The notes beneath the pieces were generated by a model. It searched no databases. It had not been told where the DNA came from and worked only from the letters and a program-made list of their open reading frames with translations. Positions 8,000-26,659 of a stretch of 39,898 nucleotides of DNA are shown in pieces. This DNA is from Calothrix sp. MO_167.B42 (lineage in GTDB: Bacteria; Cyanobacteriota; Cyanobacteriia; Cyanobacteriales; Nostocaceae): positions 1-39,898 of the forward strand of contig JASJCX010000011.1 in NCBI GenBank assembly GCA_030065255.1, given 5' to 3'. The position numbers and the translations under genes were made by a program. Every line of letters begins with the position of its first letter. The stretch's first letter is position 1.

Positions 8000-8116
8000 A
8001 CACATTAACCCTTCTGCTTTGTTGCCCTTTGAGCTTTGTTACACTTGTGCGTAAATCCGATAAATAATAAGCAGGTTGGGGCGCTGATTTCGCTGCTAAG
8101 GAAGTGGACGTGGTTG

Positions 8117-9286
8117 ATGAACAAGCCAAATATTAAAAGCCTTTATTACATAACACATGTAGAGAATTTACCGTCGATTCTTAACAGGGGGATATTATCC
8201 CACAACAAGGTTGAGGAGTTAGAGGTTTTACATACACCAATCTACGATAAAAGCATAATTAGCAAGCGTAAGGATAAGTCAACAGTTGAACGAGGTAGCT
8301 TATGGGAGTATGCCAACTTATACTTTCAACCCCGTAACCCCATGATGTATAGGGTAGTTCACGAAAAAGACAGGAGAAATATTGCTGTTATTGGGGTCAA
8401 ACCAACAATCTTACAAGCACCAGGAGGACTGATCACAGATGGAAATGCTGCTAACGAATCAACAAAATTTTTCCCCATCAATCAAGGGCTAGAAGTGCTG
8501 CAACGGCAATGGAAAATTATCCAAAATGAGTGGTGGAATGGTTCGGATGGATCAAAGCGCAAAATAATGTCTGAGTGCCTAGTTCCTGAGCAAATTAACC
8601 CAGAATTTATACATTCTATTTTTGTCAGAGATCATAAAGCAAAAGAAGAAGTTGAAAGACTTATTGGTTCGATGAATGTTCCTGTAATACCTGAACCTAA
8701 TATGTTTTTCCAACATAAATCCTTTACTAAAATTGGCAAAAATATTTTTCTAATTGATGGAGATATGTTTTTCTCTAAAGGGCAAACCCTAACGATTAGT
8801 GTTAATCTTCAGGGAGTGATGGGAAAAGGATTAGCATCAAGAGCGAAATACCAGTTTCCCGATGTTTACGTTGTTTATCAGGACGCGTGCAAAAATAAAC
8901 AAATTACTGCAACTCAACCTTATCTTTACCGGCGAGAAACTTCATTAGATCAGGAATTAGCAGACCTCACCCTTCCCCTGGCAACTCCCAATTCTGTAAA
9001 ATGGTTTTTGTTGTTAGCCACCAAGAGGAAATGGCGAGATAATTCACGTTTAGAAGATATTGAAGGCAGTCTGGATTGGGTGAGAAAGAATTTCCATGAA
9101 GCAGGAATCACATCTTTGGCAATGCCCGCTTTAGGCTGCGGATTAGGAAATTTGAATTGGAGTGATGTGGGTTCATTAATGTGTCGTTATTTACACGATA
9201 TTGATATTCCAGTTGCTATATATCTGCCCCGGGAGCAGCAAATCGACCCCAACTACTTAAAACAAGAATTCTTGCTAAATTTTTAA
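8117..9286 (+). CDS. DarT-like ADP-ribosyltransferase fused to DarG-like macrodomain
   Basis: A 389-aa single-chain protein. Residues 1-190 match the DarT (DUF4433) fold: LYYITHVENLPSILNRGIL at the N-terminus, the R51 region (ISKRKDK), YFQPRNPMMYRV, and the catalytic-type glutamate E153 in MSECLVP. DarT enzymes use NAD to ADP-ribosylate thymidine in single-stranded DNA. Residues about 205-375 match the macrodomain of the antitoxin DarG, which removes that modification: N230-LQGVMGKGLA, LLLATKRKWRDNSRLEDIE and PALGCGLGNLNW. Toxin and antitoxin are normally separate genes; here they share one chain and the C-terminal extension of canonical DarG is absent. ATG 8117 is chosen over TTG 8036 because the fold begins there, with AAGGA about 13 bases upstream. 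Likely role: genome defence or stress-linked toxin-antitoxin (inference). Confidence 0.85.
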   Translation: MNKPNIKSLYYITHVENLPSILNRGILSHNKVEELEVLHTPIYDKSIISKRKDKSTVERGSLWEYANLYFQPRNPMMYRVVHEKDRRNIAVIGVKPTILQAPGGLITDGNAANESTKFFPINQGLEVLQRQWKIIQNEWWNGSDGSKRKIMSECLVPEQINPEFIHSIFVRDHKAKEEVERLIGSMNVPVIPEPNMFFQHKSFTKIGKNIFLIDGDMFFSKGQTLTISVNLQGVMGKGLASRAKYQFPDVYVVYQDACKNKQITATQPYLYRRETSLDQELADLTLPLATPNSVKWFLLLATKRKWRDNSRLEDIEGSLDWVRKNFHEAGITSLAMPALGCGLGNLNWSDVGSLMCRYLHDIDIPVAIYLPREQQIDPNYLKQEFLLNF

Positions 9287-10676: not shown

Positions 10677-10976
10677 TCATACCCCATAGCTAAAACTATT
10701 ATAGCTCAAATAGTCAGGTAATTCATCTCCTTCTCGGTAGCAGATATAATGATCCACGCTCCAAGGTTCATCTGATTTAGTCGAGTCATACCAAATTATT
10801 TTGCAATCATCATCTTTATACTTTTCGAACACTGCCGTGACCTGACGATTCATCTCTTCGATCTGTTCGTCTGAAAACTCAAAAGACACTTCTGACCCGC
10901 CACAGATTTGTTCTGTTTGCTTATGGTTAAGTTCCATAAACACATCTGTTTCTAGTTCAGTAACTATATAACTCAT
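10677..10976 (-). CDS. Small protein with double-glycine leader-like N-terminus, unknown
   Basis: A 99-aa protein starting at ATG 10976, with AGGAAAC just upstream; an upstream in-frame extension to 11027 is less likely. Residues 1-27 look like a double-glycine leader: acidic, with hydrophobic residues spaced before a terminal C-G-G (VFMELNHKQTEQICGG). A 72-residue highly acidic, Tyr-rich tail follows (FSDEQIEEMNRQ; CYREGDELPDYL). Double-glycine leaders are cleaved by C39-peptidase ABC exporters, and the HetC-type exporter at 23.5-26.7 kb carries such a peptidase, but no modification enzyme lies beside this gene. It could equally be an ordinary small cytosolic protein whose GG is accidental. 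Confidence 0.6.
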   Translation of the reverse strand: MSYIVTELETDVFMELNHKQTEQICGGSEVSFEFSDEQIEEMNRQVTAVFEKYKDDDCKIIWYDSTKSDEPWSVDHYICYREGDELPDYLSYNSFSYGV

Positions 10977-11212
10977 TGTTTCCTGCAAAAATTTAATTAA
11001 ATTTTCTCTCCTGAATTTTAAAATCACCTCTAAGATTAAATCAAGAGGTGTATCAGTACTAATACCAATGGTTCTATTTTAATCGAGCAATCTTGTCTCC
11101 TGTTACAGTGAAGCTTAACGGGGGTGAATTGGGACCAGCACAAGGATAACATTTTGCTACGTATTTAATTTATCCTATTTGAAAAAAATAATAGGACACA
11201 CGAACGACTGGT

Positions 11213-13629: not shown

Positions 13630-14484
13630 ATGCTAGGAGATGGAACTATTTCTCAAGAATACGAAGGGGACTTTGAATCCGAATACGAAGACGAATACGA
13701 AGACGAATACGAAGACGAATACGAATACGAAGATGATGACAGCGAAGCTTTTCTGCGGAGAGCTTGGAAGAAAGTACGCCGCGTTGCCAAAAAAATTGCC
13801 CCTGTTCTCAAAAGAGTAGCACCAATTGCCGCTAGAGTTGTCGGATCAGCCGTTGGTGGACCAGGAGTAGGAGCACTCGCTGGCAGGGTTGCTGGCCGTT
13901 TTAGCCGCGAAAGTGAATTAGAGTACGAGCTAGCAGCCGAATTTGAGGACGAATACGAAGGAGACTTTGAGGACGAATACGAATACGAATACGACCTTGA
14001 ATCTGAATACGAAGGAGACTTTGAATCCGAATACGAATATGACCTTGATGATAACTCGGAAGCTGAAGAAACCGTAGCTAATATCCTGGCCGATGCTGCA
14101 AGTAAAACCCAGAGTGAAGCGGAAGCAGAAGCTTATGCGGGTGCAGCCACGGCAACTTTACTCAAACCGAAATCTGCATCTATGCAAAAAGTTACCCCTA
14201 ATGTGGTTAAAGGTGCAGCTAAGTTAACTAAAACTCTACGTAAGTCGGGTGCTACTCGTCCTCTAGTGAAGATGGTGCCGACAATTGCCCGTCTGACTAA
14301 TAAGACTCTAAGCAAGCAAGCGGCTAAGGGTAAGAAAATAACTCGTCCCCTAGCAGCGAAAGTCATGGCAAGTCATACCAAAAAAGTGCTCAGTAGTCCG
14401 ACAGCCTGCGCTAAAACCTTAGTCAAAGCCTCTCAGAAGCTAAAAACACGCAAAACCAGAAAGAAAGTAGCTAAAGCTTTCTAA
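13630..14484 (+). CDS. Acidic EYED-repeat protein with basic C-terminal module (cassette gene 1)
   Basis: A 284-aa protein of unknown function built of alternating charge blocks. Residues 10-37 are acidic and Tyr/Phe-rich (EYED units); 42-93 are basic and hydrophobic with a Gly-rich end (KKIAPVLKRVAP, VGGPGVGALAG); 94-146 are acidic again; about 150-284 form a basic C-terminal module that opens with QSEAEAEA and contains VPTIARLTNKTL and QAAKG. That last module is clearly homologous to the next gene's. No signal peptide or catalytic motif is seen. ATG 13630 is chosen over TTG 13576 because AAGGAG sits 7 bases before it. First gene of a tight five-gene plus-strand unit (47-base gap to the next). 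A secreted, envelope-associated or condensate-forming structural protein is conceivable but unproven. Confidence 0.8.
   Translation: MLGDGTISQEYEGDFESEYEDEYEDEYEDEYEYEDDDSEAFLRRAWKKVRRVAKKIAPVLKRVAPIAARVVGSAVGGPGVGALAGRVAGRFSRESELEYELAAEFEDEYEGDFEDEYEYEYDLESEYEGDFESEYEYDLDDNSEAEETVANILADAASKTQSEAEAEAYAGAATATLLKPKSASMQKVTPNVVKGAAKLTKTLRKSGATRPLVKMVPTIARLTNKTLSKQAAKGKKITRPLAAKVMASHTKKVLSSPTACAKTLVKASQKLKTRKTRKKVAKAF
13681..13734 (+). repeat. In-frame 12-base tandem repeat encoding EYED
   Basis: Three exact GAATACGAAGAC units, then GAATAC and a partial fourth unit. The near-identity of the copies at DNA level suggests recent slippage expansion of the acidic segment. Confidence 0.9.
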
Positions 14485-14531
14485 ATAAAGTCAAGGACAA
14501 CTAATTAAAAGCTTAAAGGAGAGATAAAACC

Positions 14532-15230
14532 ATGTTGGATTATGAATTAGAGTTTGGTTTAGATGGTGAATTTGAAGCTGATGGTGATAGCGAGTTTGAA
14601 GCTGACTTTGAAGCTGACTTTGAAGATGAATACGAAAGTGAAGAATTTTTAGCCAGTTTATTGCCTATGGTTGCTCCTTTAGCGGTGAAAGCAATTGGCA
14701 GTCTCGTTAAAGAGTCAGAATTTGAAGGGGATGATGATGGCGAGTTTGAATACGAACTAGAATCAGAATTAGAGTCAGCGCCTGATTCTGATGATGAAGC
14801 GATGATGCATCATTTAGCAAATATGGCGGCTAATACTGAGAGTGAAGCCGAAGCTGAAGCATTTTTTGGTGCCATCGCCTCTTTAGCTAGTAAAGCTCTA
14901 CCTATTGTCAAAAAAGTAGCTCCTACTCTTATTCGTGGTGCTGCCAGGCTAGGTAAGCGTTTGTTCCGTAACCGTCGTACTCGTCGCCTGGTTCGCACTG
15001 TGCCCACAATTATGAAAGGTACGGCATATTCCCTAGCACGTCAAGCTGCCAAAGGACGACCGCTTAATCGTCAAACCGCAGTCAGGGCTTTAGCACGTAA
15101 TACAGCTCGTGTTTTGCGTAGTCCCCGTCGCACCAGTACGGCAATGCGTCGCTATCGTCGCTATTACCCTTATAGCCGCTATCGTCGCTATTACCCCTAT
15201 CGTTCTCGCCGTCGTTACGCCTATAGATAG
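14532..15230 (+). CDS. Acidic EFEAD-repeat protein with Arg/Tyr-rich tail (cassette gene 2)
   Basis: A 232-aa paralogue of the preceding protein. Residues 1-38 are acidic repeats (EFEAD, EFEADFEADFEDEYE), 39-60 hydrophobic (FLASLLPMVAPLAVKAIGSLV), 61-83 acidic again. The shared C-terminal module follows: ESEAEAEAFFGAIASLASK, RGAARLGKRL, RRLVRTVPTIMKGT, RQAAKGRPLNRQTA, ARVLRSP. The last 30 residues or so are almost entirely Arg, Tyr, Ser and Pro (RYRRYYPYSRYRRYYPY), strongly basic. The polarity from acidic head to basic aromatic tail makes it a polyampholyte that could self-assemble or bind polyanions such as DNA, peptidoglycan or polysaccharide; this is inference. ATG 14532 has AAAGGAGAG upstream. 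65 bases separate it from gene 3. Confidence 0.82.
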   Translation: MLDYELEFGLDGEFEADGDSEFEADFEADFEDEYESEEFLASLLPMVAPLAVKAIGSLVKESEFEGDDDGEFEYELESELESAPDSDDEAMMHHLANMAANTESEAEAEAFFGAIASLASKALPIVKKVAPTLIRGAARLGKRLFRNRRTRRLVRTVPTIMKGTAYSLARQAAKGRPLNRQTAVRALARNTARVLRSPRRTSTAMRRYRRYYPYSRYRRYYPYRSRRRYAYR

Positions 15231-15295
15231 GGGTGCAAGTTGTTGCGCCCAAAAGTGTGGGGTATTAACTATTTTCTGCGGGGAAACGAAAAGCG

Positions 15296-16657
15296 ATGAA
15301 CGGACTGCAATCAACAAGAATGCCCATAGAAACCATGTTTTTCCACTGGGATGTAGATGAGGGAGAGCTGTTAACTGAGATGTTAACTCAAGATACGGTG
15401 TCACCTCATCTTCAATCTTGGCTGAGAACCCAAGCTATTAACGTCACCCGACATGCGGCCGCCTTAAAACCTTTTAGCTACCATGAGTTTGGTACCAGTG
15501 CAGCTAGTCCAGCTAAAGCCCATCTGCAAGCAGCGAATCACCTGATAAATTCTCTGCGATCGCAATTAAAAAGTATGGCTCAACAGGTGGGTGCAAGTAC
15601 CACAGAGGCAATTGAGTCACCTCAACAACCAGAATTAAGACGTTTACTGACACAAAAAGATCGGGCTCAAGCTTGGGTGAAATTGATTGAAAAAATTTGG
15701 GATTTCTATTTTGAAATCTTTAACCAAAGACGAACTCGTTTTGCTAACTGGCTTTTGGGGTGCGATCGCATTGCTTTAGATTGTTATCAGGTCATTTACA
15801 CCCATTTAGGTGTAGCTAAATCAATTCCCACACCAGGGCCATTTTCTTACATGGAGACGGGTTTTACACCATCTACCTTTAGACGAGGCATTCCCCTAAG
15901 CAAATTAGGCAAACAAATTAACCCGTTTCCCCTAATTTATTTACCCTATCACCGTTTAGTTAATCCCTGGACTTTGGGGGCAATTTTACACGAAGTTTCC
16001 CACGATTTACAAACGGATTTGAACTTGAGGCAAGCTGTACCAAGGGCGATCGCACGTAGTTTACTCAAAGCGGGAATGAGTCGGTTTGTCACTTTTACTT
16101 GGTGTCGCTGGCATAGTGAAGCCTGGGCAGATATGTGTGGTTTACTGTTGGGGGGCCCAGTGATGATGGGATCGCTGATGGATATTGCCGCGCGATCGCC
16201 TCAAGTGACTCTATATTTCCAACCCAGAAAACCCCATCCTACCCCTTACTTGCGGATTTTTATTCTGGCTGAATTATTGCGTCGTATGGGTTTTGCCAGG
16301 GAAGCGGAAGCTTATTGTCGGATGTGGCATCGTATTTATCCTCATGCCAGGGCGGGTAATATTCCCGGGCAAATCCTAGAAACCTTTGATCGGGCAAAAC
16401 GTATTGTGGTTGATACCTTAGCTTTTACACCCTATCCACAATTAGGTGATAAAACTCTAGTCCAAGCAACCGGAAAATTTACCCGTAAACATCAAAAAAT
16501 GGTGCAGGAAGCGGGACAAAGAATAGCCACAGGTAATGATCCAGGCATTATTCCTGAACGCTTTTTAATCGGGGCTTCCCGTTGGGCATTAAATCAAAAG
16601 TTAGCCACACCAGAGACAATTACAAGCAATTTTTATCAGGCATTAGTGAGGAGATAA
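15296..16657 (+). CDS. HExxH...E metallopeptidase-like protein (cassette gene 3)
   Basis: A 453-aa protein carrying a zinc-peptidase motif: H232-E233-V-S-H236 within AILHEVSHDL, followed 39 residues later by HSEAWAD (E275), the spacing and sequence style of a gluzincin, where the second glutamate is the third zinc ligand. The N-terminal 200 residues are mostly helical with a basic patch (NQRRTRFANWLLG). The C-terminal part has helical sequence (LRIFILAELLRRMGFAREAEAYCRMWHRIYP). No signal peptide is visible. I do not recognise the family. It may process the acidic proteins encoded just upstream, or be an inactive scaffold. ATG 15296 is used; ATG 15320 is also in frame and neither has a strong ribosome binding site. 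Confidence 0.8.
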   Translation: MNGLQSTRMPIETMFFHWDVDEGELLTEMLTQDTVSPHLQSWLRTQAINVTRHAAALKPFSYHEFGTSAASPAKAHLQAANHLINSLRSQLKSMAQQVGASTTEAIESPQQPELRRLLTQKDRAQAWVKLIEKIWDFYFEIFNQRRTRFANWLLGCDRIALDCYQVIYTHLGVAKSIPTPGPFSYMETGFTPSTFRRGIPLSKLGKQINPFPLIYLPYHRLVNPWTLGAILHEVSHDLQTDLNLRQAVPRAIARSLLKAGMSRFVTFTWCRWHSEAWADMCGLLLGGPVMMGSLMDIAARSPQVTLYFQPRKPHPTPYLRIFILAELLRRMGFAREAEAYCRMWHRIYPHARAGNIPGQILETFDRAKRIVVDTLAFTPYPQLGDKTLVQATGKFTRKHQKMVQEAGQRIATGNDPGIIPERFLIGASRWALNQKLATPETITSNFYQALVRR

Positions 16658-16717
16658 AAGTTATTTTCGCCTCAATATTTAGAGGAATTAAACATATTTT
16701 TTGTCGGAAGGAAGAAA

Positions 16718-18772
16718 ATGCAAGAGTATTTAATTCAGGGTTTATTAGGAGTATATCCTGATCCCGAAACACAACCACAACCATTAGAGGAAGGTGATGT
16801 ATGCACATCAACAGGATATGTCGCAGCAGGAGTTGGTTATCGCATTGAAGTATGGGATAAAGATAACCGCTTTGATGATCGTCTCGGTCAAGGCAGAACT
16901 ACAGCTTTAAAAACAGAAAATTTAGGTAATATATCCATTACTTGGGGTGAAGGAAGCTATTTTGAAATCCGCTTTGCCGATGAATCCTTAAGACAAGAAT
17001 CAGGGGAAACTGAAACTTTAGAAAATGCCGAGATTTTCTTTAAGGTATTTAAAGGTAGTCAACCTATTTTTAGTACGGAAGATAATTACTTGGATCTTGG
17101 AACTCTACCAACAGATGAAACAATTAGTACAAGTAATCCAGCCGATGATGGCTACTGTTACAAAATGTTAGTTCTTGCTTCTGTAATTGAAACGGAGGAA
17201 GAAGAAGAACGTCCTACCTATCCAATACCCATTCCTAGGGATAAGGTAGTTGATATTTTACCCACTGCTGATCAAATTTACAATTTAGGCAGACAAAGCA
17301 CCGTAACTAATACTAATAGTAGTCTGGGTGGTTCATTAAAACAAGTAGTTGATAACGCTTTTGGTAGAGTTATAGGACAAACTTTTAGAGCTGGTAATAT
17401 CACTAATTTCCGTGATTCTCTCAATCAAACTTTTGCCATTCAAGAAACTAATGGTCAAAGAACAATTACCTATAGTCCTCGTTCCTATACTACTCAACCA
17501 GAATTAGGAGGTGCAATTACAGGTGCTCAAGCTAGTCTTTATCATCGCGCTAAAGCAGCACTAAAAGAAATGCTACCTCTCCTAGATGGTATTTATGAAT
17601 TAGATCCTGCTTCAGATGAACAAAATCGGGACGCTATCCGTGCGGTTGTTCGTACCGAAATTACTGAAGTAGTCAACGAAATGGGGGTACAACAAGGACC
17701 AAGAGTTCAAAGAGTTGATAGCCTATTCCAACTATTAATTGGTACGGAAACTGAATCAAGATTACCAGAACAAATTGGTGGACAACTAAAAGATTTTGCC
17801 AGGGCTTTTGGTTTAGAAAGGTCGAAAATTAATACAGTTGATGAAGAACGTAATTATGGCAACTTCTTAATTATTAGGGATTATATAGTGTCTCTCAGAC
17901 AAAGTTGGCAAGATTATGTATCACTACAAATGGCTGGTGGTGGTTCTTTTATTGGCACACAATTAGTATTACTTTCTCAAGCTTTGTCAGTCATGGCAGA
18001 ATCAGTAAGGGAAACTTATCGCATTATGGATTTAGTTTTCCTTGGGCCAGAAGAAAGAGAATCTGTATTAATTGATTTTACTCAAGCTAGAGATACAGAA
18101 CTGCAAAAACCCCGAGCTAAAAACCGCAGACGGAGGGAGTACATTAAATGGGTTCAAACATCTTTAAACAATATTTTTAGTCGGGATAGAAGAAATGTTA
18201 CTCTCCTTAGAGTTGATGGCATTCTTGGACGACTGACAAGAGAAGCAATCAAAAGATTCCAGGAACGACGGAGGATTATAGTTGATGGAATTGTTGGACC
18301 TGAAACAGAGAGAGAGTTGATTGAGTTGACAGGCACTCAACCACCCATAATTATGGAAGAAATAGCATTTTTATTACCTGATGGTACTCCCTACTATGTT
18401 GGAGAAACAGCCCAACTTTTACCAGCAATGGAAGTAGAAAGATTACTATCTTGGGTAATGCGTTTTGCGACGGAAGAAGGACCTACATTAGCGAGATCGG
18501 GTGGTAAATTAGGAATTGCTAAAGCCATCGCAAAAACCTCGAAAACTTTAATGATATTGCTTCAGGCTTCTTCCTATGTGCCTGTACTGAATAATGCTTT
18601 CCGTCGAGAAGGTGTTAAACGTGCCCTCAGGGATTTGGCCTTCCAAACCTATCGAGTTAAACAGTTAGCTGATGAATTAATTCCGCCTTTACTATCTGGT
18701 GAAGGTGATGATGTTAGCGATAGATTTTTAAGGTCTGCAAATAATTTCCAAAACAATAATTTTGTCCGTTAA
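16718..18772 (+). CDS. Large protein with peptidoglycan-binding domain (cassette gene 4)
   Basis: A 684-aa protein. Residues about 35-90 look like a small beta-sandwich (YRIEVWDKDNRFDDRLGQG, then WGEGSYFEIRF), reminiscent of C2- or transthyretin-like modules. The middle (170-470) is helical and unfamiliar. Residues about 475-540 are a PG_binding_1 domain: WVQTSLNNIF, LLRVDGILGRLTREAIKRFQ, VDGIVGPETERELI. A helical C-terminus follows. Peptidoglycan-binding suggests envelope contact, yet no signal peptide is seen, so export, if any, must use a non-Sec route or lysis. The ribosome binding site is excellent (GGAAGGAAG, 4 bases before ATG 16718). It sits 60 bases after the HExxH gene and 59 before gene 5. 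Confidence 0.82.
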   Translation: MQEYLIQGLLGVYPDPETQPQPLEEGDVCTSTGYVAAGVGYRIEVWDKDNRFDDRLGQGRTTALKTENLGNISITWGEGSYFEIRFADESLRQESGETETLENAEIFFKVFKGSQPIFSTEDNYLDLGTLPTDETISTSNPADDGYCYKMLVLASVIETEEEEERPTYPIPIPRDKVVDILPTADQIYNLGRQSTVTNTNSSLGGSLKQVVDNAFGRVIGQTFRAGNITNFRDSLNQTFAIQETNGQRTITYSPRSYTTQPELGGAITGAQASLYHRAKAALKEMLPLLDGIYELDPASDEQNRDAIRAVVRTEITEVVNEMGVQQGPRVQRVDSLFQLLIGTETESRLPEQIGGQLKDFARAFGLERSKINTVDEERNYGNFLIIRDYIVSLRQSWQDYVSLQMAGGGSFIGTQLVLLSQALSVMAESVRETYRIMDLVFLGPEERESVLIDFTQARDTELQKPRAKNRRRREYIKWVQTSLNNIFSRDRRNVTLLRVDGILGRLTREAIKRFQERRRIIVDGIVGPETERELIELTGTQPPIIMEEIAFLLPDGTPYYVGETAQLLPAMEVERLLSWVMRFATEEGPTLARSGGKLGIAKAIAKTSKTLMILLQASSYVPVLNNAFRREGVKRALRDLAFQTYRVKQLADELIPPLLSGEGDDVSDRFLRSANNFQNNNFVR

Positions 18773-18831
18773 TCCCAGAAAATCACTTTGCTAAATCTTG
18801 ATTCCAACTTTTGCAGTTAGGAGAAATAATA

Positions 18832-19947
18832 ATGGCCACCACAGGAAAGAACCGCGATTTTTATGATAGTTTAGGGGCATTTCATGAAAAGTTAGTTGAG
18901 GAATTAGCACCGCAATTAATCGAAAATCCCCGACTAGCAGACGCACTTACCGAACAATTAGAAAAAATCCGTGAGGAAACAGACGCTGCTAACCTGAATA
19001 TTGAACCCCCACCCGATGGCGGTTTATCAGAATTAATCGGCATTGGGCCGAATGCAGCCAAGAAAATTAGTTCAACTCGTCTGCCTGCGGATGTGGAAAA
19101 CTACGATGAGAAAGTTTCCTCAGAACGAGTTCTAGCGATCGCTGATTTATACTATCTCTATCAGCTGGAAATGACTGGGGTTTTCCGTGCGGTGAAGAAG
19201 TTACAACAGCTTTTCCGTGCAGGTACAGTCAGACTTTCTAGTGGGGATGGTGCTTACGGTTTGTATCGCTTCGATCGACGTGGCAGGCTACGTTACACCC
19301 AAAGGGATCGTTATCAAGCTTACCGTCGTTCCCTAGGTTATACTACAATTCCCCCGGTCAAAGGTGCAAAACCCAATACTCAATTTCATGGCCTTTTCTC
19401 CCACTTTATCAACACTGTTGCTCAATATTGGCGTGATAAAAGAGTTTCCGATGTGATTCGTGAGCGTGCCTACGATCCTAGTTTTGGTAGTGTTGCTATA
19501 GTACGCAGGGCAGGTTTAGATTTGCGTAATAACCTCAAATGGGCTTCCTATGGTCATATTAATGTTCTACGGGTGGAAGTCATGCAGCTATTAGACGAAT
19601 GCTTCCGTATTCTCAATGCCGAGGATATTAAACGCTTATTTGGAGCAGAAAATGCTTGGGATGTGATTGAAGAGGTGATGTTGCGCTACTATAACCAAGA
19701 TGTCCAAGCTTCCCAAAGATATCGCATTGCTACCACTGGACGTAATATTCTGCGTTGGTTGGCAATTGAACATATTCTTAAGAGTTCTCAGGCACAATTT
19801 GAAGCTTTATTGCAGGAAATCGCTAACGATGTTGAAGAATGGCTCACCAGTGCTGAAACTTTAGGTATTGCCTACCGCAGTCAGAAAAAGCATGTTATCC
19901 CCATAGAAAATCGCCGTCGTCGTATGAAACGTATCCAACAGGTTTAA
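18832..19947 (+). CDS. Unknown protein, last gene of the acidic-repeat cassette (gene 5)
   Basis: A 371-aa soluble-looking protein, rich in charged and aromatic residues. The N-terminus is acidic and helical (HEKLVEELAPQLIENPRLADALTEQLEKI). A short stretch, LSELIGIGPNAAKKI (about 65-79), resembles a helix-hairpin-helix motif. The centre is basic and Tyr-rich (YRFDRRGRLRYTQRDRYQAYRRS). The C-terminus ends in a run of Arg/Lys (ENRRRRMKRIQQV). No catalytic motif, signal peptide or membrane helix. ATG 18832 with TTAGGAG about 8 bases upstream is preferred over TTG 18811. Position and strand place it as the final gene of the five-gene unit; a DNA- or polyanion-binding role is possible from composition only. 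Confidence 0.78.
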   Translation: MATTGKNRDFYDSLGAFHEKLVEELAPQLIENPRLADALTEQLEKIREETDAANLNIEPPPDGGLSELIGIGPNAAKKISSTRLPADVENYDEKVSSERVLAIADLYYLYQLEMTGVFRAVKKLQQLFRAGTVRLSSGDGAYGLYRFDRRGRLRYTQRDRYQAYRRSLGYTTIPPVKGAKPNTQFHGLFSHFINTVAQYWRDKRVSDVIRERAYDPSFGSVAIVRRAGLDLRNNLKWASYGHINVLRVEVMQLLDECFRILNAEDIKRLFGAENAWDVIEEVMLRYYNQDVQASQRYRIATTGRNILRWLAIEHILKSSQAQFEALLQEIANDVEEWLTSAETLGIAYRSQKKHVIPIENRRRRMKRIQQV

Positions 19948-20636: not shown

Positions 20637-20641
20637 TTAGT
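20475..20641. mobile_element. MITE-like insertion flanked by 33-base direct repeats
   Basis: Near-identical 33-base sequences at 20475-20507 and 20609-20641 (two mismatches; both contain ATATCTCCATA and ATTATGTTTAGT) flank about 100 bases. That interior has 9-bp inverted arms, GGTGCGTGA (20518-20526) and TCACGCACC (20567-20575), a motif typical of non-coding cyanobacterial repeats. The right-hand copy covers the last codons of the hetP-family gene. The direct repeats are much longer than usual target duplications, so recombination or slippage is an alternative. Confidence 0.5.
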
Positions 20642-21098
20642 GAAATTTATCGTAATTTAATGGTAAATCTTGTTTATTCTCCGTTTCTAATTCAGATTTA
20701 ATCGATTGATATTCATGAACTTTTGTTGAAAGCCATTTATCTAAATGACCACCACGAATTTCATTTTTATTTTTACCTACCACTTCCAAATATGCAATAT
20801 CTTTAATTTTTTTTAAGCAACCAGAAGATAAATCATTTTTACCGTTTTTTTCAGAGAGTGGGTTGATATTTTCTGTCTGTGTTTGTTGATTATTTTTGAC
20901 GCGAGAATTTTCCTTAAGTAAGCGATTATAGGTACGGTAAGGAATGTAATGCAAAGGGTTATATCCAGCAAAACGCAACATTAATACACAAGCCCAGGAA
21001 TATTTACCTGCCAAAATTGCCTCAACTAGTTGATCGAATTGCTCCGGATGAATTGATTGCTCTAATTTACTATTAATGCCAGGAGTGTTTTGACGCAT
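20637..21098 (-). CDS. hetP: HetP-family heterocyst commitment protein
   Basis: A 153-aa protein. Residues about 17-66 carry the HetP-family core: [40 protein letters not shown] and NRLLKEN. HetP and its paralogues act in Anabaena at the step where a differentiating cell becomes committed to the heterocyst fate, under HetR control. The rest (67-153) is polar and low-complexity with little conservation expected. ATG 21098. It lies downstream of hetC on the same strand, as hetP does in Anabaena sp. PCC 7120, but with an extra HlyD-like gene between them. Whether this is HetP itself or a paralogue cannot be settled without alignment; synteny with hetC favours HetP. Its last codons overlap a direct repeat. 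Confidence 0.9.
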
Positions 21099-21195: not shown

Positions 21196-21978
21196 TTAAT
21201 TTATTCTGGCTGAAAATATTTCAGCAATACTATAATAACCCTTGATTTCAGTAGTCATCTTTTGTCCTGCATTGAAAGCTATATGTTGATTTTTGTTCAT
21301 GGAATCAGTCCGGTCTAAAGCTATTTCCATTTGATAAAATAAAACCTTCTTATTATTTGAGTCAGTATCCGGAAAAATAGAATTTATTTTTCCAGAAATA
21401 ATACCATATCTTGTTAATGAAGGATTATCAAACTCTATTTTTAGAGGCATCCCTTTTTTGAAAAAAGTAGCTTGCTGTTGAGATATTTGAGCCTTAAATA
21501 TGACACGATTTTGCATTAATTTACCCAGTTTTATTTGTTTTTTATCTGGGATATCTAAACTAAGTAATTTGTCATTTTTGACTGGCTTATATCTTTCCAG
21601 TTCCACTGGAGAAAACAGTATCCCCTGAACACGAGCAACTTCTACAAATTTACCTTTCCACACCCAAATCATCAATGCTGTTAAAAAAGATGTACTAGCT
21701 AAAAAAACTAGATAAACCAGCATTGATGGTCTTTGATTTAGTAACATCTGCAACGATTTAGAACAGTTGCCTTGATGATTACATTTTTGCTGCTGGGTTA
21801 TAGAAATTGCAGTTGATTCCTTTGTATCGATTGTACTGATATTAGTCTCAATTGCCCCACACATTGAAACTTTTGTTGGAGGTGGATTATCCCCAAGATG
21901 AGATTTATTGTTTCTCATTCTTGAGTTTCTTAACTTATTAAAGGTTCCGACTGCATAAGACCTGATGATTCTTTCCAT
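21196..21978 (-). CDS. Short HlyD-like membrane-fusion protein lacking the coiled coil
   Basis: A 260-aa protein resembling the adaptor subunits that pair with ABC exporters. Residues 1-85 are a polar cytoplasmic tail; one membrane helix (about 86-107, LVYLVFLASTSFLTALMIWVW) is followed by a short barrel segment (VEVARVQGILFSPVELERY) and then directly by the C-terminal beta domain (KKGMPLKIEFDNPSLTRYG, ISGKINSIFP, NAGQKMTTEIKGYYSIAEIF). The alpha-hairpin that spans the periplasm in ordinary HlyD proteins (typically 350-500 aa in all) is missing. ATG 21978 is preferred over TTG 22017. It sits 97 bases upstream of hetP and 1.5 kb downstream of hetC, and could be HetC's partner or a degenerate relic. 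Confidence 0.72.
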   Translation of the reverse strand: MERIIRSYAVGTFNKLRNSRMRNNKSHLGDNPPPTKVSMCGAIETNISTIDTKESTAISITQQQKCNHQGNCSKSLQMLLNQRPSMLVYLVFLASTSFLTALMIWVWKGKFVEVARVQGILFSPVELERYKPVKNDKLLSLDIPDKKQIKLGKLMQNRVIFKAQISQQQATFFKKGMPLKIEFDNPSLTRYGIISGKINSIFPDTDSNNKKVLFYQMEIALDRTDSMNKNQHIAFNAGQKMTTEIKGYYSIAEIFSARIN

Positions 21979-22223
21979 GAGCTGACCTATAAACAGAAAC
22001 CAGACTTTTGGTAACAAGTCTGTGTACTACCCAAGTGCAATCATTTAGATACTGTCAATATTTTTATTTAGCAAAAAATACTGAATATATTGATTGCTGG
22101 GCTGTAGTTTTGCAAAGGTAGTGACCTATGGGAAAATTTACTTATGTTATGTCATGGTAAATAACATAACAAAGTCTTCGTTTGGTTCTTGGTAGATGCA
22201 GTTTTATTCTCTCAAAATTTTTT

Positions 22224-23518: not shown

Positions 23519-26500
23519 CTATCGAATGCAACTGCTATAATAACCACCATTCATTCTCATCAATTGCTCATGGGTTCCTTGTTCGATGAGCATACCTCTA
23601 TTGAGGACAAATATATAATCGGCATGGCGGAGGCTAGAAAGACGATGGGTAACAATCAATTTCGTGCAATGTAAGTGCTGCAAATTTCTTTGCAAACATT
23701 GCTCCGACTTTCCATCTAATGAGCTAGTAGCTTCATCAAAAATCAACATTTTTGGCTTATTAACCAGAGCGCGAGCGATCGCAATTTTTTGTTTTTGCCC
23801 CCCAGACAGGATAATTCCCCCCTTTCCCACTAGAGTTTTATAACCCAGGGGTAAATTTTGGATAAATTCATGGGCATTGGCTAGTTTTGCGGCGGCCATG
23901 GCTTGTTCTAAGGTAAATTGAGAATTATAGAGGGTAATATTCTCAAAAATAGTCCCTGAAAATAACAAACATTCTTGGGGAACTACACCCAATTGACTGC
24001 GTAAAGACTGGGGAGATAACTCCCGGATATCATAACCATCAATAAAAATATGACCGGAAGTGGGAGGATATAAACCAGTTAATAAATTAACTAAGGTTGT
24101 TTTACCAGAACCACTAGGGCCAACAATACCTATGGTTTGTTGGGGTTGGACTGTCAAGGAGATATTGTTGAGGATGTTATCTTCATCGTTGGCATGGTAA
24201 CGGAAACTAACATTGGTAAAATTTATGGCACCCTGCAAAGATGGCAGCACAGTTAAGGGTTGTTGGGGATTTTCTTGGGTTGCAGTACCCCAAACATCTT
24301 GGACTCTTTCTAGGGATATTAATATTTCTTGCCATTCATCCCATAACCCAATCCATGCCAAAAGGGGATTAATTGCATTCACCATCAACATATTGAAAGC
24401 GACAAATTGACCGATTGTCATCTGTCCGTTAATTGTCAACCTGGCACCCCACCACAATATCCCTGTGGTTCCTAAATGTTTGATCAAGGAAGTCGCTAAC
24501 TGGAGATTATTGACCAGTTTTTGCCCCCGAAATCGCACCTTAACCATATTTGCAAATCTTTCTTCCCAATGCCAACGCACTGATAGTTCAGCTGCGGCAG
24601 TTTTGATGGTATGAATGCCTGTAATGGTTTCGACAATGGACGAATTTTGTTGAGATGATGCCTGCCAAAGCTCCCTCAATAACCTTTTACGTAGTGGACT
24701 GGCTCCTATACTCAAACAAGCGATCGCAAAAATTATAAATAATAAAAATAAAGTTAATTGCCAATTGTAGTATAATAGTAAGCCCACACAGACAATGGTC
24801 ATCACCGCGTCCAAACTCATACCCACAGCTTGGCGAGTCAAAAATATTTGGATTTTGCGATTTTCTTGGACGCAAGCAATTATGTCTGCCAGGGGACGGG
24901 AGGTGAAAAATTGCCACGGTAAGGTCAACAGATGACTTACGAAACCCCCTAACAAAGAGATATCCATGCCTTGGGCAAAATAGTCCAGCAGATATTGGCG
25001 CACTGCTTTTAAGCTAATTTGCCAGATGCCAAAGCAGAGGAAACCAGCAGTAAAAAGATTGAGAATGGCTAAATTTTTGTTAGGTAATACATGATCGATG
25101 GCAATCTGTGTGAGTAAGGGTGCAAGTACGCCAAATATTTGCATTAATAAGGAGGCAAAGACGATTTGTCCGATTAAATAACGATAATGGCGTAATCCTT
25201 GCCAAAAACCATGGAGAGAGATTTTCTCATTGGGTTGGGTATGCAACTGTTGGGTTGGTTCCAAAAGTAAAGCGTATTCCGTCCAATGATCAGAAAACTC
25301 TGCAACTGTTAGCCATCGCTTACCAATGGCAGGATCGCTAATCAAAACCCGATTTCCTGCCACCTTCCAAACTACGACATAATGTATTCCTTGCCAATGG
25401 GCAATCCAAGGATCGGCTAGGGATGCTAATTCACCCAAAGAACCCTTGACTGCTAAACTTTCATACCCTAAAGTCTTTGCAGCTGCTAATAAACCTGCCA
25501 AGGAGCTACCTGTCTCATCTACCCTTGCTAAACGACATAGGGTATTGAGGCTAAAGCGTTTACCCCAATATTGACTAACCATGGCTAAACAAGCCGCACC
25601 ACAATCAGAAGTGGTTTGCTGTTGCACAAATGGATAGGAATGCCATAATTTAGCTATTAATCGTCGGCGATTTCTTGGTTGGGTAAATGTGATCTCTTCA
25701 TTAGTACTAGTTTCCGTATTCCCAATAGATTTGACAGATTCTTCTTTGCGTCTTTGCGTCTTTGCGTGAGATAAATCCCCACCTGAATTCACCAGTACCT
25801 GTTTTCCTGGAGAATCCTCTATTTTTGCAGATAATATTACCTGTGGCTCTGGTGGAGTATATGAGGCTCCCACCCCCATAATTGTGCCATCACAATATGC
25901 TAGCGGTAGGTGATAGACTAATAAATCCGTTGTTGAATCCGTTGTTGCCATCCCTTCTGGGGAATTATCATCACCATATCCCCAACTATCTCCCATTTGT
26001 AAGGATGTGGTGGTAGTACCATCAATCAGCCAAAACCGTCCTTGGGATGCAGGAGTGGCCACAGATAAACATGAGCCAGCATTAACGGTAATTTTTTCCA
26101 GGTGGGGTAAGATTTTTAATAGGGTACTACTAGTTTGCGATCGCAATTCTGTCCGGGTTTTCAAGAAAATCAGTTTTTGCCGCTCGTTTACCGTCTGATG
26201 TAAAGATTCTTCTAGATGGGTAAATTTTTGTAACCACTGCTCTAGCTGGGAAATTGGTAACTTTGCCACCCAACCAGGTGCTGCTGCAATGGCTTGATAT
26301 GGTAATGGTTGATGGTGGAATAAATGGTCAGCACCAAAATTTTGTTCTACTAACAATAATTGTGTGGATACCCGTCGTTCCAAGGTGGGGTCAAATGCAA
26401 CAATCCTCACTTTACCTGCACCAATCAGATACAAAAAGCGATCGTTGTCTTCCATGGAGCCATCTAGGGTATAACTTACCAAATCATCACCCAATTGAAA

Positions 26501-26659
26501 CTCATCTACCAGCCAAAACTCACTGAGTTGGGATATTTGACTCGAATCTCTGGCAAAAATCCTCAAAAACTTGAGAATAGTTGCACTTACCGTGGGAGAT
26601 TGCTGGTCATTGGTATATTTCCGCTCTCCCTCAACTCTAAAAGATGAAGAGGAGTTCAT
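23519..26659 (-). CDS. hetC: HetC-type C39-peptidase ABC exporter
   Basis: A 1046-aa single-chain exporter. Residues 1-310 are a regulatory region resembling two cyclic-nucleotide-binding-like folds. Residues about 340-460 are a C39 peptidase with catalytic C353 (TTSDCGAACLAM), a histidine in GIHYVVVW and an aspartate in ISDPAIG, so it should cleave double-glycine leaders. Six membrane helices follow (about 495-760), then an ATPase domain with Walker A GPSGSGKTT (near 846-854), LSGGQKQKIAIARAL, Walker B MLIFDEATSSLD and THRLSS. Length and architecture match HetC of Anabaena (about 1044 aa), which is needed for heterocyst development and linked to handling of inhibitor peptides such as PatS. 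The neighbouring HetP gene supports hetC. A dispersed DNA repeat is read in frame in the linker (SHAKTQRRKEE). ATG 26659 has no clear Shine-Dalgarno sequence. Confidence 0.9.
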   Translation of the reverse strand: MNSSSSFRVEGERKYTNDQQSPTVSATILKFLRIFARDSSQISQLSEFWLVDEFQLGDDLVSYTLDGSMEDNDRFLYLIGAGKVRIVAFDPTLERRVSTQLLLVEQNFGADHLFHHQPLPYQAIAAAPGWVAKLPISQLEQWLQKFTHLEESLHQTVNERQKLIFLKTRTELRSQTSSTLLKILPHLEKITVNAGSCLSVATPASQGRFWLIDGTTTTSLQMGDSWGYGDDNSPEGMATTDSTTDLLVYHLPLAYCDGTIMGVGASYTPPEPQVILSAKIEDSPGKQVLVNSGGDLSHAKTQRRKEESVKSIGNTETSTNEEITFTQPRNRRRLIAKLWHSYPFVQQQTTSDCGAACLAMVSQYWGKRFSLNTLCRLARVDETGSSLAGLLAAAKTLGYESLAVKGSLGELASLADPWIAHWQGIHYVVVWKVAGNRVLISDPAIGKRWLTVAEFSDHWTEYALLLEPTQQLHTQPNEKISLHGFWQGLRHYRYLIGQIVFASLLMQIFGVLAPLLTQIAIDHVLPNKNLAILNLFTAGFLCFGIWQISLKAVRQYLLDYFAQGMDISLLGGFVSHLLTLPWQFFTSRPLADIIACVQENRKIQIFLTRQAVGMSLDAVMTIVCVGLLLYYNWQLTLFLLFIIFAIACLSIGASPLRKRLLRELWQASSQQNSSIVETITGIHTIKTAAAELSVRWHWEERFANMVKVRFRGQKLVNNLQLATSLIKHLGTTGILWWGARLTINGQMTIGQFVAFNMLMVNAINPLLAWIGLWDEWQEILISLERVQDVWGTATQENPQQPLTVLPSLQGAINFTNVSFRYHANDEDNILNNISLTVQPQQTIGIVGPSGSGKTTLVNLLTGLYPPTSGHIFIDGYDIRELSPQSLRSQLGVVPQECLLFSGTIFENITLYNSQFTLEQAMAAAKLANAHEFIQNLPLGYKTLVGKGGIILSGGQKQKIAIARALVNKPKMLIFDEATSSLDGKSEQCLQRNLQHLHCTKLIVTHRLSSLRHADYIFVLNRGMLIEQGTHEQLMRMNGGYYSSCIR
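25743..25766 (-). repeat. Dispersed 8-base repeat inside hetC
   Basis: Three exact CTTTGCGT units, the core of a well-known cyanobacterial intergenic repeat, here translated on the minus strand as part of SHAKTQRRKEE between the regulatory and peptidase domains of HetC. A related CTCTGCGCC repeat lies between genes at 23425-23450. Confidence 0.85.

What the first reader, a model, noticed from the sequence alone, without database searches (positions are those of the whole stretch)
13630..19947. Five-gene polyampholyte/peptidase cassette, candidate undescribed system
Seen: five plus-strand genes with gaps of 47-65 bases, in order two acidic-repeat proteins with a shared basic C-terminal module, a HExxH...E protein, a 684-aa protein with a peptidoglycan-binding domain, and a basic-tailed protein. 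Known: PG_binding_1 domains and gluzincins are envelope- or processing-related. Inference: the set makes an assembled, possibly processed charge-patterned structure contacting the cell wall. None has a signal peptide, which hints at lysis-dependent or non-Sec release. I know of no described system with this gene order.
Basis: partly seen in the sequence, partly recalled or inferred. Interest (0 to 1): 0.85.

Follow-up and report, generated by a model that had tools for sequence, protein, structure and literature searches.

The report
Undescribed five-gene bacterial effector cassette
Five neighbouring genes in a cyanobacterium belong to a gene set found in the same order in very different bacteria and not described in anything we could search; it looks like a kit that builds a charged protein assembly and arms it with swappable cell-wall-cutting and DNA-cutting proteins, though its function is untested.

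Summary
In detail: five plus-strand genes at 13630-19947, gaps 47/65/60/59: charge-polar P1 and P2 sharing a C-module, a HExxH...E protein (P3), P4 with PG_binding_1, and P5. P3, P4 and P5 match no solved-structure sequence credibly; P3 and P5 models match no solved fold. PG-binding is not the core feature (1 of 55 P4 scanned). In relatives, genes behind P5 are modular: three shared N-terminal domains with different C-termini, nucleases among them; other neighbours are wall hydrolases. In one subtype they carry P1's LFExP tag (9/11 against 2/78 elsewhere). No contractile-tail gene is linked. Best reading, unproven: a phage-unrelated assembly of charge-polar proteins, matured by P3 and scaffolded by P4/P5, that carries polymorphic effectors. 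Against: most first genes behind P5 carry no tag, and this window's copy has no effector gene. Eight paper searches (six empty) found no description.

The parts
13630..14484 (+). P1: acidic-aromatic N-terminus, glycine-rich hydrophobic cationic segment, basic C-terminal module
13825..13881 (+). P1 glycine-rich hydrophobic segment (aa 66-84)
   Evidence: hydropathy maximum
14182..14400 (+). P1 copy of the conserved C-terminal module (aa 185-257)
   Evidence: 44% to P2, E 8e-13; profile found in 80 of 94 loci
14532..15230 (+). P2: second charge-polar protein of the same family
14907..15125 (+). P2 copy of the conserved C-terminal module (aa 126-198)
   Evidence: profile found in 81 of 94 loci
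15296..16657 (+). P3: predicted zinc metallopeptidase (HExxH...E), mostly helical, no known family
15989..16003 (+). P3 HEVSH motif (H232-H236), in a predicted helix 228-241
16118..16120 (+). P3 third predicted metal ligand, E275, in a predicted helix 273-286
16718..18772 (+). P4: N-terminal region aligned with relatives of which some have transthyretin/prealbumin-like domains, then a conserved core; scaffold candidate
18137..18313 (+). PG_binding_1 in P4 (aa 474-532), found only in this copy among 55 scanned
18832..19947 (+). P5: all-helical protein, the strictest partner of P3, no known family or solved fold

Best explanation
The five genes are the core of an undescribed, horizontally spread effector-assembly cassette. 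P1 and P2 are made without an export signal and keep a membrane-active, glycine-rich cationic part masked by their own acidic-aromatic segments. P3, a stand-alone HExxH...E metallopeptidase, trims P1/P2 or the cargo and so arms the particle. P4 and P5 form the scaffold or adaptor. In relatives, genes behind P5 encode modular cargo: an N-terminal segment resembling that of P1 (acidic-aromatic or LFExP) or a conserved loading domain, joined to changing domains (nucleases, peptidoglycan hydrolases, Het-C, OmpA). The assembly is released by lysis or another non-Sec route and delivers the cargo to competing cells. This window's copy carries the core alone, with a PG-binding domain inside P4. Shown: co-conservation, charge pattern, conserved putative active site, modular and tagged neighbours in relatives. 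Inferred: assembly, masking, processing, release, delivery and toxicity.
For: P5 downstream of P3 in 66 of 66 loci with at least 4.5 kb after P3 (on the other strand in one, L087); P1/P2 module, P4 and P5 all found in 60 of 80; strict order on one strand in 50 of the 79 gene maps with a called P3. P4-P5 gap median 42.5 bases (n=60), P1/P2-P3 gap median 43 (n=63). HExxH and E275 invariant in 47 P3. Acid-to-base polarity 98/114 against 5/448. Three accessory groups with like N-termini and different C-termini; Pfam names the C-terminus in two of them, Endonuclea_NS_2 in L025 and GIY-YIG in L027; accessory genes overall also hit SLT, M74, Het-C, OmpA and M15. LFExP tag in 9/11 accessory genes where the locus's own P1/P2 carries it, 2/78 elsewhere, 2/776 other genes. 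In 292 cyanobacterial genomes the QWLFExP DNA pattern occurs 5 times, 3 of them within about 5 kb behind the cassette of G217. One constant domain rings only right behind P5, in 2 of 9 genomes given; the other in G048 right behind P5, besides one marginal match with 5 in-frame stops in G288, of 292 genomes. P3 clades each span phyla.
Against: No toxicity, assembly or peptidase activity is shown. This window has no effector behind P5: the next gene, 690 bases on and on the other strand, is HetP-type. Only 15 of 47 first genes after P5 carry either tag; the commonest accessories are M20 peptidases (18 of 92) and amidohydrolases (13 of 92), which are not toxin-like. No immunity genes were recognised. 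P3's model matches no solved peptidase fold. The membrane-active reading of the glycine-rich part rests on sequence character; a simple zipper-like pattern was found in 59 of 114. The first constant domain gave 0 of 292 in a sample without a known positive. The tag pattern was absent from the other carriers in the sample (G000, G048, G147, G262) and occurs singly in two genomes not among the P3 matches (G078, G157).
Confidence: 0.45

Rival explanations
1. One reading: the set builds an envelope- or matrix-bound charged polymer; hydrolases behind P5 remodel the cell's own wall and P3 processes the polymer.
For: PG-binding and wall-hydrolase domains recur in P4 of this copy and in accessory genes; prealbumin-like domains (SpaA in 4, SdrD_B in 3, CarboxypepD_reg in 4 of 55 P4) are typical of surface proteins (recalled).
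Against: No N-terminal hydrophobic segment in any of the five; GIY-YIG and NS-endonuclease C-termini do not fit a wall role; the cassette occurs in one- and two-membrane phyla (membrane types recalled).
Confidence: 0.2
2. An intracellular cargo compartment or programmed-lysis device: P1/P2/P4/P5 sequester dangerous enzymes in the producer until P3 releases them.
For: No export-signal-like N-termini; N-terminal motifs shared between P1 and cargo resemble a loading signal; LuxR-like genes near many copies (5 loci besides the query's own; a cluster of 64 loci read as LuxR-type from its sequence).
Against: P5 and P3 models match no solved shell or other fold; wall-binding and wall-cutting domains suggest action outside the cytoplasm.
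Confidence: 0.15
3. A satellite of extracellular contractile injection systems: the set prepares effectors for tail-like machines encoded elsewhere.
For: Accessory Het-C and OmpA domains are also reported in PVC-type toxins (PMC3482391, passages seen); 6 of 8 carrier genomes have a sheath-family gene somewhere, prophage or not.
Against: 2 of 8 carriers, among them the single-contig G048, have no sheath hit, and the hits in the other six lie more than 600 kb away or on other contigs; no tail family among the 25 of 33 Pfam families shown for 92 accessory proteins and no DUF4157 in 47 P3.
Confidence: 0.07
4. A metabolic or signalling operon: M20 peptidase, amidohydrolase and P3 degrade or make a small peptide product; the other genes are hitch-hikers.
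For: M20 in 18 and Amidohydro_2 in 13 of 92 accessory proteins; clusters of 33 and 25 loci.
Against: In the list, read by eye, no cyanobacterial locus has the M20-like gene and three (L023, L025, L084) have the amidohydrolase-like one; this window has neither behind P5; the reading does not explain polar P1/P2 or tag sharing.
Confidence: 0.08

Closest known systems
PVC/extracellular contractile injection system toxins with the PVC-metallopeptidase (Zhang et al. 2012, PMC3482391; section 13 read, other passages)
   Same: A HExxHxxQ...E metallopeptidase associated with variable toxin domains, including Het-C and C-terminal OmpA; often without immunity genes; reported in free-living bacteria including a cyanobacterium.
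   Different: Here the peptidase is a separate protein of about 450 aa with no Pfam peptidase match; no tail gene was found at the cassette; no counterpart of P1/P2, P4 or P5 was seen in the passages read.
Classical polymorphic toxin systems (same paper)
   Same: A constant N-terminal part joined to changing C-terminal nuclease, wall-hydrolase or lipase-like domains, in relatives of this cassette.
   Different: The effectors are small to mid-sized, show no known trafficking domain in the Pfam families seen, and sit behind a core of five proteins that is itself new.
Endolysin-like and other PG_binding_1 proteins
   Same: P4 of this window carries PG_binding_1 and matches endolysin PHROGs through it.
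   Different: The domain was found in 1 of 55 P4 proteins scanned; P4 is defined by its conserved core, and no phage relative of P3 or P5 was found.

Membership tests
Extracellular contractile injection system (PVC/eCIS) | Sheath, tube, baseplate and AAA+ genes in the cluster | tested here: not met
   No such family among the 25 shown of 33 Pfam families for 92 of 113 accessory proteins; sheath PF04984 absent from 2 of 8 carriers and not near the cassette in the other 6; tube, baseplate and AAA+ families were not searched genome-wide
Extracellular contractile injection system (PVC/eCIS) | PVC-metallopeptidase (DUF4157, Pfam name recalled) domain | tested here: not met
   47 P3 proteins, no DUF4157 or other peptidase family at E<=0.1; only the HExxHxxQ...E pattern is alike
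Polymorphic toxin systems | Constant N-terminal region with unrelated C-terminal toxin domains | tested here: met
   Met by downstream genes of relatives, three groups, with a nuclease named by Pfam in two (L025, L027); not present in this window
Polymorphic toxin systems | Adjacent immunity protein | tested here: inconclusive
   None recognised among the Pfam families shown for 92 accessory proteins; small unknown neighbours were not examined one by one
Gluzincin-type zinc metallopeptidases | HExxH plus downstream Glu, all invariant | tested here: met
   H232, E233, H236, E275 invariant in 47; both motifs in predicted helices
Gluzincin-type zinc metallopeptidases | Known peptidase fold | tested here: inconclusive
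   Model mean pLDDT 88 but no PDB match at E<=0.001; ligand geometry could not be measured
Peptidoglycan-binding proteins | PG_binding_1 domain in P4 | tested here: met
   Window copy E 2.7e-10, but 1 of 55 P4 scanned, so not a family trait
Phage-derived particle | Relatives of core proteins in phages | tested here: not met
   No match for P3 or P5 in 50,697 phage records or in IMG/VR pattern scans; P1, P2 and P4 were not searched there

The most novel reading that the evidence does not exclude
A new, phage-unrelated class of protein-delivery assembly shared by at least eight bacterial phyla: charge-polar membrane-active proteins, a dedicated metallopeptidase and two scaffold proteins of unknown fold form a carrier loaded through an acidic-aromatic or LFExP N-terminal segment with interchangeable antibacterial effectors.
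Probability: 0.35. Interest if true: 0.93.

Novelty: categorically new. Interest (0 to 1): 0.82.

Why it matters
A five-gene core kept in order across genomes titled as eight phyla, with three proteins that match no known family or solved-structure sequence, is rare among what remains undescribed. If it is a delivery assembly, it would add a non-contractile, signal-peptide-free route for moving effectors between bacteria, explain a class of acidic/basic hypothetical proteins now seen only as oddities, and offer a natural loading tag. Even if the delivery reading fails, the cassette is a clear target: its parts are of ordinary size and present in culturable non-pathogens.

Tried and rejected
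Rejected: that the genes are a chance neighbourhood; a phage or prophage origin (P3 and P5 only); direct membership in contractile injection systems; PG-binding as the family's defining function. Led nowhere: sequence-profile search of solved structures for P3, P4, P5 (at best chance-level hits, E 0.032 or worse); fold search of P5 and P3; empty-site comparison in the same genus, because the two flanking genes lie on different contigs in the three relatives; PHROGs (only the PG-binding part of P4). Eight paper searches cover openly licensed PMC papers only; six returned no paper, so their terms may have been too narrow; one search listed one paper (PMC3482391, then read in part) and ten of eleven, seen as a listing, of which PMC7159879 was searched by six terms with nothing relevant.

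The P4 count of 78 loci includes L008, whose hit covers only the PG-binding part. 80 open frames hit the P4 profile; 55 went into A4 after I dropped near-duplicates, fragments and three that looked like separate PG-binding accessory genes (L008, second hits of L029 and L034), so 1 of 55 depends on that choice. A6 holds the window and 46 of 48 representatives (L032 and L082 left out). Genes in the maps come from a home-made caller that misses some P1/P2 in GC-rich loci. L017 and L026 appear to be the same contig. Many loci are metagenome bins. Phylum labels were typed from record titles, the present-day names being recalled. Clusters include antisense artefacts, which I ignored. Related loci are not independent in the tests. 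21 of 113 accessory proteins were not given to Pfam. The window's genome is 80% complete, so absence of further copies or effectors in it is weak evidence.
Full report
What is there. The window comes from a cyanobacterium of a heterocyst-forming kind (a HetP-family gene lies at 20637-21098). The five genes are real open frames on the plus strand. P1 starts at ATG 13630 behind AAGGAG. P5 most likely starts at ATG 18832, because homologues begin with nearly the same residues, and the four gaps are then 47, 65, 60 and 59 bases. P1 and P2 alternate strongly acidic and basic stretches; their acidic-aromatic-acidic triplets (18 and 9) exceed every one of 1000 shuffles, and they share a basic C-terminal module (44% over 73 aa, E 8e-13). 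The only other place in the genome that P1 matches is P2 (the assembly is 80% complete). None of the five has a hydrophobic N-terminal segment.

Families. Pfam, NCBIfam and PHROGs give P4 one real domain, PG_binding_1 (aa 474-532), and nothing credible for P1, P2, P3 and P5; the best of the rest is a low-complexity match of P2 to Trypan_PARP (E 0.00095, far under its cut-off). Profiles of P3, P4 and P5 find no credible relative among solved-structure sequences. The P5 model is all-helical, mean pLDDT 75, the P3 model mostly helical, mean pLDDT 88 and pTM 0.87; neither matches a solved fold at E<=0.001, and P3 matches no predicted viral structure at that level. In P3, H232, E233, H236 and E275 are invariant in an alignment of 47 and lie in two predicted helices, the arrangement expected of a gluzincin-type zinc peptidase; none of the 47 matches a Pfam peptidase family at E<=0.1.

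Distribution. P3 matches occur in 7 of 386 sampled cyanobacterial genomes, the window's own included, and P5 in 3 of 40, own included, with none in the three same-genus genomes, so the set is patchy. In 94 loci in all, P4 was found in 78 (77 without L008, whose hit is only the PG-binding part), P5 in 79 and the P1/P2 module in 80-81. Of the 80, 66 have at least 4.5 kb after P3; P5 is in 66 of those 66 and P4 in 59; the P1/P2 module, P4 and P5 are all present in 60 of 80. By the stricter count on the gene maps, P1/P2 before and P4 and P5 after P3 on one strand, it is 50 of 79. P5 lies on the strand of P3 in 78 of 79; L087 is the exception. A complete set also sits on a Paraburkholderia megaplasmid. 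A midpoint-rooted P3 tree of 88 sequences has three clades, each with more than one phylum (supports 0.946, 0.997, 1.0), which points to horizontal spread of three old subtypes. Distant P3 relatives on rhizobial plasmids sit beside CHAT, phospholipase, patatin and peptidase genes.

What the core looks like across relatives. Of 114 P1/P2 proteins of 200 aa or more, 98 are strongly acidic at the front and strongly basic at the back, against 5 of 448 other genes of 200-450 aa. A ~186-aa protein sits between P3 and P4 in about half of the loci (cluster of 45 loci), not here. Of 55 P4 relatives some carry transthyretin/prealbumin-like domains (TTR-52 in 5, CarboxypepD_reg in 4, SpaA in 4, SdrD_B in 3) and only this window's has PG_binding_1. 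A small LuxR-like gene lies near many copies: 5 of the first loci besides the query's own and a cluster of 64 loci (read as LuxR-type from its sequence); none was found in this window. In a mainly proteobacterial subtype two other genes stand in the place of P4 in most members.

The genes behind P5. I listed 113 same-strand genes downstream of P5 and scanned 92. Commonest are M20 peptidase (18) and Amidohydro_2 (13); others are PG_binding_1 (6), GerE (5), trypsin-like (3), OmpA (3), DUF4438 (3), Het-C (2), M15, M74 and DUF2272. Three groups share an N-terminal part and then diverge: L016/L025/L060/L068; L018/L027/L028; and L045/L073/L077/L097 (L073 and L077 are alike throughout, and L060 and L068 nearly so). 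Pfam names an NS endonuclease in L025 and a GIY-YIG domain in L027 and finds nothing in L016 and L097; M15-like and OmpA-like ends in L073/L077 and L045 were read from the sequence, not assigned protein by protein. Other neighbours carry SLT (L089) and M74 and Het-C (L085). A constant front with changing ends is the layout of polymorphic toxins (PMC3482391, passages seen and section 13).

A shared tag. In one subtype P1 or P2 begins with an LFExP motif, and so do 9 of 11 downstream genes in those loci, against 2 of 78 downstream genes in other loci and 2 of 776 other genes (loci are related, so the p-value of 5e-9 is optimistic). In 292 cyanobacterial genomes the DNA pattern for Q-W-L-F-E-x-P occurs 5 times: 3 times within about 5 kb behind the cassette of G217 and once each in two genomes not among the P3 matches; the pattern read backwards occurs once; the other carriers in the sample have none. 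The first constant domain rings only immediately behind P5 in G364 and G014, the latter copy with an in-frame stop, of 9 genomes given; its search of 292 sampled genomes was empty but that sample held no known positive. The second rings in G048 right behind P5, plus one marginal match full of stops, of 292 genomes, and in no other of 8 carriers.

Reading. I think the cassette makes a non-contractile effector assembly: P1/P2 as charge-masked membrane-active parts, P3 as maturing peptidase, P4/P5 as scaffold or adaptor, and exchangeable cargo carrying P1-like N-termini. The co-conservation, the charge pattern, the active-site residues and the modular neighbours are shown; assembly, masking, processing, release and toxicity are inferred. 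Against it: 32 of 47 first genes behind P5 carry neither tag, the commonest accessories are metabolic-looking hydrolases, no immunity genes were recognised, and this window's own copy ends at P5.

Known systems. The nearest described thing is the PVC-type injection system, whose toxins carry a HExxHxxQ...E metallopeptidase (section 13 of PMC3482391). Membership fails: no DUF4157 in 47 P3, no tail gene found at the cassette, and 2 of 8 carriers have no sheath gene at all. Eight searches of the held papers found no description of this set, six of them returning no paper; most subscription papers and preprints are not covered.

Noticed in passing
window 8036-9286 +: One frame joins a DarT ADP-ribosyltransferase domain (E 3e-50) with a partial macro domain (E 2e-5), so a DarTG-like toxin and its antidote domain may be fused.
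   Followed up: no
window 10677-11027 - and 23519-26659 -: A small protein with an ELNHKQTEQICGG double-glycine-type leader (motif recalled) lies 12 kb from a C39-peptidase ABC transporter with a weak cNMP-binding match; possibly a bacteriocin-like pair around the cassette.
   Followed up: partly
window 21196-22017 -: An HlyD-type adaptor that matches only the C-terminal part of the type I model; perhaps truncated or split.
   Followed up: no
L005 9001-9957, L006 9001-9678: Distant P3 relatives on conjugative rhizobial plasmids beside CHAT genes, with patatin, phospholipase D and GMC oxidoreductase (L005) or a C25 peptidase (L006) nearby; a possible further branch.
   Followed up: partly
L100 15514-16545: A DUF4438 protein (E 5e-51) behind P5 in the proteobacterial subtype; 3 of 92 accessory proteins scanned have this family.
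   Followed up: no
L087 8879-16959: P5 and P4 face the other way and a second P1 follows, as if two cassettes met head to head on this metagenome contig.
   Followed up: no
window 29351-32224 +: One frame joins a glycerol-3-phosphate acyltransferase-type domain with a PEP-synthase-like ATP-binding and PEP-utiliser domain, which looks like an unusual fusion.
   Followed up: no
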